Source: Shinella kummerowiae
GTDB taxonomy: Bacteria; Pseudomonadota; Alphaproteobacteria; Rhizobiales; Rhizobiaceae
Assembly: GCF_009827055.1 (NCBI RefSeq)
Contig: NZ_WUMK01000009.1
Location: forward strand, 62,001-126,000
DNA length: 64,000 bases
Direction: 5' to 3'
Part shown: positions 30,690-33,746 of the stretch, piece by piece
Layout: each line of letters opens with the position of its first letter
How positions within the stretch are numbered: position 1 is the first letter of the stretch
Notes under the pieces: generated by a model
What the model saw: only the letters and a program-made list of their open reading frames with translations
The model's database searches: none
What the model was told of the DNA's origin: nothing
Made by a program: the position numbers and the translations under genes

Positions 30690-31133
30690 TTAATCCAGCA
30701 GGTCGGCCGGAACCTTCCCGCCATTGTCGGCGAGCGCCTTCATCAGGGCCTTGTGCAGCCAGATGTTCATGGTGGCGGAATCGCTCTTGTCGCCGGTATA
30801 GCCCAGCTCGTCGGCAAGCTCCTTGCGCTCCTGAAGGCTGGCATCCATGCCGAGCGCCTTCATCATGTCGACGATGGAGCGGCGCCAGTCGAGCTTCTGG
30901 CCATTCTTGGCAACAGCCGCATCGAGGATCGCGGCAACATCGACCGGTTGGCTCGGTGTCGTCGTCGCCGGGCGGTTTTCCACGGGGGTCACGACCGCAT
31001 CCTTGCCGGCCGTCGGCGTCGCGGCCATATCGGCCGTCGCCGGCTTCACGGCGTCCGCCGTGATCGTTTCGGCCGCCTGCTTGTCTTCCGCCTTGCCGAA
31101 GAGCTTTTCCTTGATGGAACTGAAAATACCCAT
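30690..31133 (-). CDS. DUF3597 family protein
   Basis: 147 residues from MGIFSSIKEKLFG (GGGAG upstream; an in-frame ATG at 31184 is less likely). An N-terminal amphipathic helix and a disordered Ala/Thr/Pro-rich linker (about 15-60) precede the conserved C-terminal domain: VDVAAILDAAVAKNGQKLDW, then RSIVDMMKALGMDASLQERK and MNIWLHKALMKAL. The function is unknown. The domain resembles a small peptidoglycan/solute-binding helical fold, often found near envelope genes. Confidence 0.85.
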   Translation of the reverse strand: MGIFSSIKEKLFGKAEDKQAAETITADAVKPATADMAATPTAGKDAVVTPVENRPATTTPSQPVDVAAILDAAVAKNGQKLDWRRSIVDMMKALGMDASLQERKELADELGYTGDKSDSATMNIWLHKALMKALADNGGKVPADLLD

Positions 31134-31312
31134 AGTAGACTCCCTGTTGCTTCGCGCCCGCTTTCGCGCGGCGTGACGAAACAATAGGGTCGCGGCCTGT
31201 CATTTCAATGAATGCTTTTTAAACGGCGCGGCATCATGGGTCGATTTAGCGATACAGCGCACGATGCATTGGTCCGGAGCAGGCTGTCGGCGGATTTCAT
31301 GAAACAAACCAC

Positions 31313-31328
31313 GGCTGGGGCGCCAGGA
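31313..31328. repeat. Distal att repeat of the tRNA-Gln island
   Basis: GGCTGGGGCGCCAGGA, identical to the 3' end of tRNA-Gln at 33148-33163. Confidence 0.8.
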
Positions 31329-31445
31329 CGAAAAGCCAGCCTACTTTTTAAGCGTTAAATTAAACAACTATCTGTCTTTATTGACTATTTTTCACAAAGA
31401 TTGTAGCATCAGACTGTAACGTTCGGAGGCTATACGAGGAAAAAT

Positions 31446-31661
31446 ATGGCACGGGTGAGCCACCTTCTGCGACGTGTTGCAAGCTACTATGCGTGCTTAA
31501 AAGTGCCGACCCAGCTTGCAGGCATCATCGGCAAGAAGGAATTGGTGAAGGCCCTCGGCACCAAAGACGAGACCGTAATAGCGCCGACCGCACGTTGCAA
31601 GAGGTGCCACCGCTCACCCAAACGCGATCTACGCCCGCACGACCGACTGCTTAAACATTAG
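31446..31661 (+). pseudogene. Integrase remnant (N-terminal DUF6538-like part only)
   Basis: The frame starts with ATG after GAGGA and encodes about 46 residues that match the N-terminus of tyrosine integrases (MARVSHLLRRVASYYACLKV, then PTQLAGIIGKKELVKALGTK). It then runs into about 25 basic, Cys/His-rich residues that do not belong to that family, and stops. The arm-binding and catalytic domains are missing. This is a deletion or frameshift remnant of the enzyme that brought the island in. Its end overlaps the 3' end of the Abi-alpha gene on the other strand by 33 bp. Confidence 0.7.
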
Positions 31662-32324
31662 CAAAAGGGGAAGAGCCTGAAACCAGCCTACCGATGAATA
31701 GACGGTGAGATTGCAGGGCATTTTGTGCTCTTCATGAGCGGCGTAACCAACGCTTCCAGAGTTGTCACACGAGAACAGGCCAAGCGCGACAAAACGAGTA
31801 AGCGAGAAATTTAGAGCTTGCTCATCGACGTTGAAGTCCGTTGCCCTTAGTCGCAGCGACTCACGCCGCATCTCTGCAAGATCGATCTCAAAAAGACGGT
31901 CAAGAACTCGCTTGTCTTCAGGTTCAAGTTTACTAATAACATTCGTAACAATCGCGGTTATCCCAATCGAACCTTTACTTGGATCGACGGCGTTCGCGAT
32001 GTAGTTCGCCCACATTTCCTGTAATCCATCGTCACTTTCTAATGAAACTGCCTCGATTAGCGGGATACTTGCACGTTCCTCCACGCGCAGGACGCTTGAA
32101 TCCATTCCCAATGACTTCAGATGTTTTTCGGTTTTGATCGCGACCGAAGCACGATTACGTATGCGGAATCCTCTTGCGGAGTCTGCTAGCGCGCCTGCGT
32201 AAGCCGCTATCGCCTCTTGAAATGTTTCGGCGAGATACCGACCGCCCTTTTCGCCCGCCTCGATAGCCTTTCCTGTCGTCTTCGCAACTTCAGCAGCAGC
32301 CTTGAACCCCTCGTCGCCGATCAT
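31629..32324 (-). CDS. Abi-alpha (DUF4393) family protein, putative abortive-infection effector
   Basis: 231 residues. The N-terminal helix (GFKAAAEVAKTTGKAIEAGE) and the following YLAETFQEAIAAYAGALADS match the amphipathic start of the family. The core RVEERASIPLIEAVSLESDD then LQEMWANYIANAVDP is the Abi-alpha/DUF4393 motif. The C-terminus VGWFQALPLLLMFKQSVVRA is unusual and may be altered by the nearby integrase remnant. Members are linked to phage exclusion by infected-cell death, but the mechanism is not known. The ATG overlaps the DUF4145 stop (TAATG) with AAGGAAGG upstream. Confidence 0.75.
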   Translation of the reverse strand: MIGDEGFKAAAEVAKTTGKAIEAGEKGGRYLAETFQEAIAAYAGALADSARGFRIRNRASVAIKTEKHLKSLGMDSSVLRVEERASIPLIEAVSLESDDGLQEMWANYIANAVDPSKGSIGITAIVTNVISKLEPEDKRVLDRLFEIDLAEMRRESLRLRATDFNVDEQALNFSLTRFVALGLFSCDNSGSVGYAAHEEHKMPCNLTVYSSVGWFQALPLLLMFKQSVVRA

Positions 32325-32977
32325 TAATCCTTCCTTTGTCCAGATTCGACCTGCTTGGCTTTAACGCGTGCTATGCGAGCCGGCTTTACAAAGAGACGAT
32401 CCAGAAGATCGTCGGTCAAATCTTGGAGCGCTTCCGCTTCACCGGAAGTGTATGGATCAGTATCATGAGCGGCGTCGTTGCCGTCCATCAGAGCAACATC
32501 CGCGAGTTCTACGATTTCCTCATCCAAGATTTTGAGCTGGCCGAGAGCAGCAACGCGCGCGCGAGGCGCGTCCGCAGGTTTCTTTCCAGCTAGACGAGAA
32601 TCGGTCGCGTAGATTTCTTTTGTTGCCACATCAATCGTTTTACGAAACATCGCTCCGGCGGCGTCGAAAAGAGACAACTGACGACAACGCGCTGCTTGTC
32701 GAAATAGCTCCTGCACTCGATTCGGCACATCGGCCGATAAAATCGGATCATCGGGCAGTGCGATAATCGCTTGTTGAGAAAAATAACGCCCCTTATCTAA
32801 CGCTCCGGTCACGTTCGAGATGTGAGACTGCAGCTGACCTTCATAGATACTGCCGTGGCCGCAAGCTTTACATACGAAGAATACCTCCGCATTTAGGCCA
32901 TCTGTGCTTGTCATCGCCACCGCATCTAACTGCGAGACAACGCTGCAACGAATGCACTTCCTAATCAGGTGGGCCAT
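32324..32977 (-). CDS. Zinc-ribbon DUF4145 protein
   Basis: 217 residues. A zinc ribbon at the N-terminus (CIRC at about 8-11 and CKAC at about 36-39) is followed by the DUF4145 helical domain: FDAAGAMFRKTIDVATKEIY near 105-125 and LADVALMDGNDAAHDTD near 162, the conserved asparagine-aspartate-histidine motif of the family. DUF4145 occurs alone or fused to nucleases and helicases in defence loci. It is the first gene of the coupled pair. The ATG has only a weak ribosome binding site (AAGAAA). Confidence 0.78.
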   Translation of the reverse strand: MAHLIRKCIRCSVVSQLDAVAMTSTDGLNAEVFFVCKACGHGSIYEGQLQSHISNVTGALDKGRYFSQQAIIALPDDPILSADVPNRVQELFRQAARCRQLSLFDAAGAMFRKTIDVATKEIYATDSRLAGKKPADAPRARVAALGQLKILDEEIVELADVALMDGNDAAHDTDPYTSGEAEALQDLTDDLLDRLFVKPARIARVKAKQVESGQRKD

Positions 32978-33146
32978 TTTCTTAATACCGAATCGACGCA
33001 GTTCCAGTAGCGTATTGCATCAATGGGCTTTGTGGGAGAGTAGGACTACTATTTGCAGTTGACCGGTGTGGATCATCCGCAAGCGTGTAACACTTAGAGG
33101 CTCCTAATTAAACCTAATAGACTGAATTTATTGAGAAATTATGCCA

Positions 33147-33221
33147 TGGCTGGGGCGCCAGGATTCGAACCTGGGAATGCCGGTACCAAAAACCGGTGCC
33201 TTACCGCTTGGCGACGCCCCA
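33147..33221 (-). tRNA. tRNA-Gln(TTG)
   Basis: 75 nt with encoded CCA. Acceptor TGGGGCG pairs with CGCCCCA, the anticodon loop TTTTGGT gives anticodon TTG, and the T arm is CCAGG-TTCGAAT-CCTGG. Its 3' end is the attachment site of the island at lower coordinates. Confidence 0.97.
33148..33163. repeat. tRNA-proximal att repeat of the island
   Basis: GGCTGGGGCGCCAGGA inside the 3' part of tRNA-Gln, identical to 31313-31328. Confidence 0.8.
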
Positions 33222-33449: not shown

Positions 33450-33746
33450 ATGTCCAAGTTCCGCGCCCGCCCGCCGGCCGTGCCGACCATTCTCCTCGAC
33501 GATGCGGTGGTGCGCGTCACGCGCTGGGATTTTGAGCCGGGCGCCGATACCGGCCACCATGTGCATGGGCTCGGCTATGTGGTGGTGCCGATGACGGATT
33601 GCGACTTCCTGATCGAGGAGGAAACGGGCGAGCGGCGGGTGCACAGCAAGGCCGGCGCGGTCTATCGGCGCGAGGCCGGCGTGGCGCACAATGTCGTCAA
33701 TGGCGGCGACAGCCCGATGAGCTTCATCGAAATCGAATACAAGTGA
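33450..33746 (+). CDS. Small single-domain cupin
   Basis: 98 residues. The cupin pattern is visible: GADTGHHVHGLGYVVVPMTD (metal-binding His pair), then KAGAVYRREAGVAHNVVNG with the third His. GAGGA precedes the ATG. Its stop overlaps the GTG start of the MBL-fold gene, so the two act together. The substrate is unknown. Confidence 0.85.
   Translation: MSKFRARPPAVPTILLDDAVVRVTRWDFEPGADTGHHVHGLGYVVVPMTDCDFLIEEETGERRVHSKAGAVYRREAGVAHNVVNGGDSPMSFIEIEYK

What the first reader, a model, noticed from the sequence alone, without database searches (positions are those of the whole stretch)
31313..33163. A 1.85-kb mini-island in tRNA-Gln with matching att repeats
GGCTGGGGCGCCAGGA occurs at the 3' end of tRNA-Gln and again 1835 bp away. 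Between the copies the DNA is clearly more AT-rich and holds an integrase fragment and two genes of defence-linked families. Very small tRNA-borne islands that keep only cargo and an integrase stub are easy to miss and often carry defence genes.
Basis: partly seen in the sequence, partly recalled or inferred. Interest (0 to 1): 0.8.

Follow-up and report, generated by a model that had tools for sequence, protein, structure and literature searches.

The report
Collapsed phage-like island keeping defence genes
A 1.85-kb stretch beside a glutamine tRNA gene in a Shinella bacterium looks like what is left of a much larger virus-like element: its two ends, the first bit of its insertion enzyme, and two genes of families linked to defence against phages.

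Summary
GGCTGGGGCGCCAGGA ends tRNA-Gln(TTG) and recurs 1835 bp away; these are its only exact copies in the 6.34-Mb Shinella genome. The DNA between is 50.4% GC, flanks 64.4%. Three of 20 other Shinella genomes show the empty site with one copy. The integrase fragment is the first ~43 codons of a ~596-aa DUF6538 recombinase; intact relatives start about 133 bp from the same core, at the far end of phage-like elements (8.7-18.5 kb) in tRNA-Gln. The island matches those elements only at its ends, including an arm motif on each side. Best reading: a deletion derivative of such an element that kept both borders and its tRNA-side cargo, a DUF4145 (HEPN-type) and an Abi-alpha gene. It is probably immobile: integrase broken, no close relative of it in the genome, one arm drifted. 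Collapse recurs: a sibling Shinella keeps an AbiU2-family gene with a decayed arm at the same site. New member of a known kind (cryptic tRNA island). Anti-phage activity is inferred.

The parts
33147..33221 (-). tRNA-Gln (anticodon TTG), the integration target
   Evidence: ARAGORN, Rfam RF00005 60.6 bits
33148..33163 (+). proximal att core (3' end of the tRNA gene)
   Evidence: exact 16-mer; only two exact copies in the genome
31313..31328 (+). distal att core, read as the displaced original tRNA 3' end
   Evidence: exact 16-mer; flank to its left has the length and place of the spacer at empty sites
31380..31423 (+). left arm: two degenerate copies of the TGTAACAC motif, 13 bp apart, at the position of the clean pair in 8 of 10 elements
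   Evidence: left-arm matrix (from those 8): 22.6, next best on the window's plus strand -0.4, training set 44-62; minus strand not scanned; aligned
31446..31661 (+). integrase stub: about codons 1-43 (31446-31574) homologous to ~596-aa DUF6538 tyrosine recombinases, then 28 codons with little or no homology
   Evidence: Pfam PF20172; best 80% identity over residues 1-44 to the Rhizobium paknamense integrase; start 133 bp from the core, 133-135 in 5 of 10 related loci
31575..31628 (.). zone taken to hold the deletion junction, between the end of clear integrase homology and the Abi_alpha stop codon
   Evidence: DNA match to intact elements ends near 31576; position inferred; one protein alignment runs further with gaps
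31629..32324 (-). Abi_alpha (PF14337, formerly DUF4393) family gene, 231 aa
   Evidence: Pfam E 2.8e-11; PADLOC PDC-S47 weak, E 3.7e-4; 73% identical relative in G139
32324..32977 (-). DUF4145 (HEPN-type) gene with cysteine pairs at the N-terminus, 217 aa; its stop overlaps the Abi_alpha start (TAATG)
   Evidence: Pfam PF13643 E 7.3e-9; PHROG 1305 E 1.9e-23; overlap read
33086..33147 (+). right arm: TGTAACAC (33086-33093), then 54 bp to the core
   Evidence: right-arm matrix 46.6, next best in the window -13.3 (plus) and -9.0 (minus); with 52-56 bp allowed, all 11 hits have 54
30690..31139 (-). left flank gene DUF3597 (chromosome)
   Evidence: Pfam E 1.7e-48; same neighbour at the empty sites
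33450..33746 (+). right flank gene, cupin (chromosome)
   Evidence: Pfam Cupin_2 E 1.9e-5, just under its cut-off; syntenic in congeners

Best explanation
This is the collapsed remnant of a larger (most relatives 14-18 kb) phage-like element, prophage or satellite, that had integrated into the 3' end of tRNA-Gln. Shown: integration geometry (core repeat, empty sites), identity of both element ends, truncated integrase, two intact cargo ORFs on the tRNA side. Inferred: one internal deletion ran from about integrase codon 44 to just behind the Abi_alpha gene and removed the rest of the integrase and the structural genes. The remnant lost mobility and was left as a fixed two-gene operon, possibly kept because Abi_alpha and its HEPN-type partner abort phage infection. 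Expression and anti-phage activity are not shown.
For: Repeat and GC break. Three empty sites. Integrases of 593-596 aa start 133-135 bp from the core in 5 of the 10 loci examined (G086, G082, G199, G268, G119), as the stub does; the other 5 differ by my start-codon choice, are broken or are more distant. The island matches ten related elements only at its ends: left end 8 of 10, right end 6 of 10, nothing between. Both arm matrices have one outstanding hit in the window, at the two ends. The cargo lies where related elements carry variable tRNA-side genes (18 loci). One parent-type element (S. zoogloeoides) encodes portal, capsid/protease, HNH, head closure, terminase small and large, and tape measure proteins. 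No close relative of the integrase in the host: three other hits at 26-30% identity. Parallel collapses: Shinella G010 (AbiU2-family gene plus decayed right arm), Mesorhizobium qingshengii (frameshifted integrase piece, one gene, arm), G139 (Abi_alpha plus arm, no integrase).
Against: No element of this family carrying Abi_alpha or DUF4145 was found, so the parent itself is not seen. A single deletion is inferred; several steps would look the same. Loss of mobility is inferred: the cores and the right arm are intact. At the other remnants the distal core was not found. TGTAACAC is not at the right end of two of ten elements (G199, G227), nor the pair at the left end of two (G119, G227), so the arms are a feature of most, not all, of the family.
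Confidence: 0.85

Rival explanations
1. A live, non-autonomous mini-element: it keeps the sites a recombinase needs and is excised and re-integrated in trans by integrases of related elements that enter the cell.
For: Both cores and the right arm are intact and the left-arm spacing is kept. An intact relative occurs in the genus, in S. zoogloeoides. Precedent: the microcin H47 island of E. coli excises without its own recombinase (PMC3191183, passages read).
Against: The whole unit is seen in 1 of 21 Shinella genomes, and none of the other fetched right-arm loci encodes its cargo (49 stretches). No close relative of the integrase in the host. Both left-arm motifs differ from TGTAACAC at 2 of 8 positions. 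The sibling remnant G010 shows no distal core within 3 mismatches.
Confidence: 0.08
2. A defence cassette that entered the tRNA-Gln site by other means (homologous recombination or another integrase) with a chance integrase-like stub.
For: The site is used by other DNA: G003, G020 and G014 carry a different 685-700-aa ORF that looks like an integrase next to the tRNA (by eye, family not scanned), and G017 an HNH gene without the arm.
Against: Both arms and the integrase start sit at family spacing, and the DNA match is to both ends of the same elements; chance is very unlikely to give that.
Confidence: 0.03
3. Neutral debris: the two genes are leftovers that happen to be intact and have no retained function (compatible with the collapse reading).
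For: The DUF4145 copy lacks the arginine that 3 of 4 aligned relatives have before GNDxxH. The Abi_alpha/DUF4145 pair is not conserved.
Against: Both ORFs are intact and overlap as an operon. Abi_alpha protein change is low while synonymous sites are saturated against G139 (pN 0.18, pS 0.95), though that spans time before the collapse. A second remnant in the genus also kept an Abi-family gene.
Confidence: 0.25

Closest known systems
Cryptic (defective) prophages and islands in tRNA genes carrying defence genes; E. coli defence hotspots (PMC10121019, passages read)
   Same: tRNA 3'-end target, core repeat, present in a subset of strains, defence-linked cargo
   Different: only 1.85 kb; integrase reduced to about 43 codons; both ends still recognisable
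Microcin H47 small genomic island of E. coli (PMC3191183, passages read)
   Same: small island with flanking repeats and no complete recombinase gene of its own
   Different: that 13-kb island was shown to excise and integrate; nothing of the kind is shown here, and a close relative of the lost integrase is absent from the genome
Abi-alpha of Enterococcus faecalis prophage 6 (PMC6356687, passages read)
   Same: same Pfam family (PF14337/DUF4393); phage-borne abortive infection gene
   Different: distant relative in another phylum; here paired with a DUF4145 gene and untested
Capsid-encoding phage satellites (cf-PICI; recalled, primary paper not read) and small satellites such as PICMI (PMC10803314, listing and abstract start only)
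   Same: the parent's size (~18 kb) and its portal, capsid, terminase and HNH genes are reminiscent
   Different: satellite nature was not tested; a tape-measure gene is present; none of these genes was seen in the remnant

Membership tests
tRNA-targeted integrative element (tyrosine recombinase type) | direct repeat made of the tRNA 3' end at both borders | tested here: met
   exact 16-mer
tRNA-targeted integrative element (tyrosine recombinase type) | empty site with a single copy in relatives | tested here: met
   G004, G007, G009: 3 of 20 congeners
tRNA-targeted integrative element (tyrosine recombinase type) | complete integrase gene | tested here: not met
   about 43 codons of ~596 remain; hence filed as a remnant
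DUF6538-integrase tRNA-Gln phage-like elements (grouped here) | left end: core, about 133 bp with paired TGTAACAC motifs, integrase start | tested here: met
   motifs degenerate in this copy; pair present in 8 of 10 elements
DUF6538-integrase tRNA-Gln phage-like elements (grouped here) | right end: TGTAACAC, 54 bp, core | tested here: met
   motif present in 8 of 10 elements
DUF6538-integrase tRNA-Gln phage-like elements (grouped here) | structural and packaging genes | tested here: not met
   the three ORFs scanned in the island are the stub and two cargo genes, and the middle has no DNA match to the elements; present in S. zoogloeoides
Abi_alpha (PF14337) | Pfam match above curated cut-off | tested here: met
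   44.2 bits against cut-off 29
Abi_alpha (PF14337) | abortive infection phenotype | not testable with these tools
   shown for E. faecalis ef2833 (PMC6356687)
DUF4145 / HEPN RNase | Pfam match above cut-off | tested here: met
   36 bits against cut-off 23.1; DUF4145 is a HEPN family (PMC3710099)
DUF4145 / HEPN RNase | Arg...His active-site motif | tested here: not met
   GNDAAH present, the Arg three residues before it absent; present in 3 of 4 aligned relatives, there with 7 residues between Arg and His rather than the paper's 4-6
DUF4145 / HEPN RNase | HEPN fold | tested here: inconclusive
   single-sequence model, mean pLDDT 46

The most novel reading that the evidence does not exclude
The tRNA-side end of this element family works as a cargo slot that outlives the element: elements repeatedly collapse, in different lineages, to the recombination arm plus one or two abortive-infection or HEPN-type genes, turning phage-borne weapons into fixed host defence genes at tRNA-Gln. 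In the boldest form, such stubs still move with integrases supplied by visiting relatives.
Probability: 0.25. Interest if true: 0.65.

Novelty: new member of a known kind. Interest (0 to 1): 0.4.

Why it matters
It gives a clean worked example of how a phage-like element can shrink to its defence-linked cargo, with both ends, empty sites and intact relatives of the ends in hand, and a short pattern (arm, 54 bp, tRNA-Gln end) that finds other remnants and their cargo genes. It would let one test whether defence cargo outlives the rest of the element more often than chance.

Tried and rejected
Chance repeat: rejected. Native chromosomal genes: rejected by empty sites; the whole island is absent from the 20 other Shinella genomes, two of which have short matches. 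Plasmid origin: no DNA match in 72,556 plasmids and no Abi_alpha protein match there. The right-arm pattern has 0 hits in viral contigs, and of 76 stretches that matched Abi_alpha peptide patterns there none was confirmed. A conserved two-gene system: not supported; the genomes hit by Abi_alpha (9 of 247) and by DUF4145 (5 of 247) overlap only in this one, and no DUF4145 match (E<=1, five-sequence profile) lies beside 23 other Abi_alpha loci within about 1.5 kb. tRNA nearness of Abi_alpha: 4 of those 23 loci hold a tRNA gene, suggestive only. Structures: poor models (mean pLDDT 46 and 35), so no fold search was run. Solved structures: nothing convincing. Papers: searches. One search asked for at least 3 of 6 terms, found 59 papers and listed 12, none with DUF6538; this is no claim of absence from print.

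Rows dropped before a count: the right-arm matrix used 20 of 23 collected arms (left out: this one, G199 and G227, the last two lacking the motif); the left-arm matrix used 8 of 10 elements (left out: G119, G227). Controls against a loose reading of the matrix: one training arm scores -25.6 when left out; another Shinella site without known remnant (G015, score -20.5) also ranks first of 3800 over 62 bp, though not over 45 or 36 bp; and the empty site G004 reaches 7.5-8.3 over the short lengths if shifts up to 6 bp are allowed. G010 scores 1.3, 13.6 and 18.8 over 62, 45 and 36 bp without shift.

Full report
What is there. The 16-mer sits at 31313-31328 and at 33148-33163, the latter the 3' end of tRNA-Gln(TTG). 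In the whole 6.34-Mb genome it has two exact copies, both here. The 1.8 kb between has GC 0.504 against 0.644 in the flanks and is lower than all 622 same-sized windows sampled in the 64 kb. Its three likely genes are an integrase stub (plus) and an operon on the minus strand of DUF4145 followed by Abi_alpha, whose start overlaps the DUF4145 stop.

Empty sites. The genus is taken to be Shinella: G020 has a contig of the same length, 719,106 bp, as Shinella zoogloeoides PQ7. Among 20 other genomes of the genus, G004, G007 and G009 have DUF3597 and tRNA-Gln separated by a short spacer with a single core. G010 and G017 have other inserts of about 0.9-1.0 kb at this place. G002 and G005 have the flanks joined without a tRNA there. 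In the other 13 the DUF3597 flank is not next to the tRNA, so they do not inform. The whole island is in 1 of 21 genomes of the genus.

The parent. In 247 genomes of the family, 14 had a match to the stub at E<=0.001, this one included. Of the 14 matches in the 13 others, 11 lie in open frames of 577-829 aa and 3 in frames of 219-324 aa. Four of the weaker ones (38-41% identity) sit by other tRNAs (Ala, Leu, Met, Phe), so the wider integrase family is not tied to tRNA-Gln. Ten loci with a Gln-type core were examined. Five (G086, G082, G199, G268, G119) have a 593-596-aa ORF starting 133-135 bp from a core of the form GGCTGGGGMRCCWGGA. G226, G097 and G129 have long ORFs that my start-codon choice placed at 69, 126 and 132 bp; G227 has a broken 322-aa frame; G268's second copy is more distant, at 150 bp. 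Fifteen integrase loci align with the stub: 14 alignments end at residue 41-44, one (G086) runs with gaps to 67; the closest is R. paknamense, 80% over 44 residues. Ten elements bounded by two cores measured 7.7-18.5 kb. Those with a long integrase ORF run from 8.7 kb (Neorhizobium lilium) to 18.5 kb (Rhizobium paknamense); S. terangae (7.7 kb) and G227 (11.0 kb) have broken integrases. An eleventh, in G268, spans about 27.9 kb by coordinates. In S. zoogloeoides the 18.4-kb element encodes integrase, portal, capsid/protease, HNH, head closure, terminase small and large, and tape measure proteins among ten proteins scanned; one of the ten matched only families without known function and one matched nothing. 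Related contigs of 9-19 kb occur in the viral collection (6 loci). Whether these are prophages or satellites was not tested.

Two ends and nothing between. Aligned to the ten elements, the island matches only at its left end (8 of 10) and right end (6 of 10), with nothing in between. The ends carry what look like recombinase arm sites: TGTAACAC once on the right, 54 bp from the core, and twice on the left, 13 bp apart. Each feature is present in 8 of the ten elements; G199 and G227 lack the right one, G119 and G227 the left pair. A matrix from 20 other right arms scores 46.6 at 33086 and at most -13.3 elsewhere on the window's plus strand (-9.0 on minus). A left-arm matrix from 8 elements scores 22.6 at 31380 and at most -0.4 elsewhere on the plus strand; its training arms score 44-62. 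That these motifs bind the integrase is inference; on the left they lie near the integrase start and could be operators. In this copy both left motifs differ from TGTAACAC at two positions, though TGTAACGC, one step from one of them, occurs in two intact elements.

How common is collapse. The right-arm pattern found 11 of 394 family genomes and 18 named records, 21 distinct loci together. The pattern demands an intact right motif, so decayed arms are missed. Eight have a distal core and a long integrase ORF (G086, G082, G119, G310, G268, S. zoogloeoides, R. paknamense, N. lilium). Two have a distal core and a broken integrase (this one and S. terangae). Nine have no full-length integrase found: five by a genome-wide search with one 74-residue N-terminus alone (M. 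qingshengii, M. muleiense, Roseibium, Aureimonas altamirensis, Mesorhizobium M1B), three by a search of 49-80 kb alone (G338, G100, G414), and Pseudohoeflea by both; a divergent integrase could be missed. Two are cut by contig ends (Aminobacter AP02, Aureimonas ME7). One search was given 12 of the 18 named loci; five others were covered by earlier calls and one lies at a contig end. In M. qingshengii a frameshifted integrase piece, one cargo gene and the arm remain, with no distal core within 3 mismatches in the 8 kb held. In Shinella G010 a gene of the AbiU2 HEPN family (E 4.3e-14) lies beside what scores as a decayed right arm: 1.3 over 62 bp, below 19 of 20 training arms but above all 3800 background positions; G015, without known remnant, also ranks first over 62 bp at -20.5. 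G017's HNH gene has no arm. In G139 a 73% identical Abi_alpha lies beside a right arm (27.2 after a 1-bp shift, -34.4 without it, background maximum -12.3). A second tRNA-Gln end about 10 kb further on bounds DNA with ORFs that look by eye like phage head proteins (not scanned). None of 49 stretches around these elements and remnants encodes Abi_alpha or DUF4145 at E<=1e-3 (G139 and G010 were not among them).

Function. Abi_alpha was shown to cause abortive infection with premature lysis in E. faecalis (PMC6356687, passages read). A relative (33% identity over 61%) lies in three small Vibrio phage records; the one opened is classified with filamentous phages. DUF4145 is a HEPN family, mostly with an Arg-His RNase motif (PMC3710099, passages read); this copy lacks the Arg. 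So abortive infection is the best guess for Abi_alpha, with DUF4145 as a possible partner, but the pair is not conserved. PADLOC gives only a weak candidate hit for Abi_alpha and none for DUF4145. Of the tRNA-side genes in other elements and remnants scanned with PADLOC, the S. zoogloeoides and N. lilium ones hit a candidate model weakly (PDC-M14A); six others, and the G139 Abi_alpha, hit nothing.

Verdict. A well-supported collapsed element, a new member of a known kind. The recurrence of collapse to the cargo end, twice in one genus with Abi-family genes, is the part worth following. The count is small, most other remnants' cargo has no assigned family, and retention by selection is not shown.

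Noticed in passing
L039:4390-5166 (Shinella G010): A 0.92-kb AT-rich insert at the same tRNA-Gln site holds one gene, HEPN_AbiU2 family (E 4.3e-14), beside a decayed right arm.
   Followed up: partly
L034:12948-13718 (Shinella G017): A different ~1-kb insert at the same site holds an HNH_5 endonuclease gene, without a recognisable arm or second core.
   Followed up: partly
L083:10961 to L119:4992 (G139): A ~10-kb stretch with ORFs that look like phage head proteins lies between tRNA-Gln(CTG) and the Abi_alpha remnant: tandem use of one tRNA (ORFs judged by eye).
   Followed up: partly
L156:594-18985 (Shinella zoogloeoides PQ7): Intact 18.4-kb phage-like element at a tRNA-Gln end with portal, capsid, terminase and tape-measure genes; its tRNA-side gene weakly matches PADLOC PDC-M14A.
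   Followed up: partly
L038, L041, L045 beside tRNA-Gln: Shinella G020, G003 and G014 carry a different 685-700-aa ORF that looks like an integrase directly next to tRNA-Gln(TTG) (family not scanned).
   Followed up: no
L044, L046 (G002, G005): Flank genes sit together without a tRNA-Gln between them; identical tRNA-Gln copies lie elsewhere in these genomes.
   Followed up: no
L157:603-8299 (Sinorhizobium terangae): A 7.7-kb element with two cores and an integrase split into two frames, perhaps an intermediate stage of decay.
   Followed up: partly
L170:6566-7285 (Vibrio phage 1F53_PE002): A DUF4393/Abi_alpha gene in a small phage record classified with the filamentous phages.
   Followed up: no
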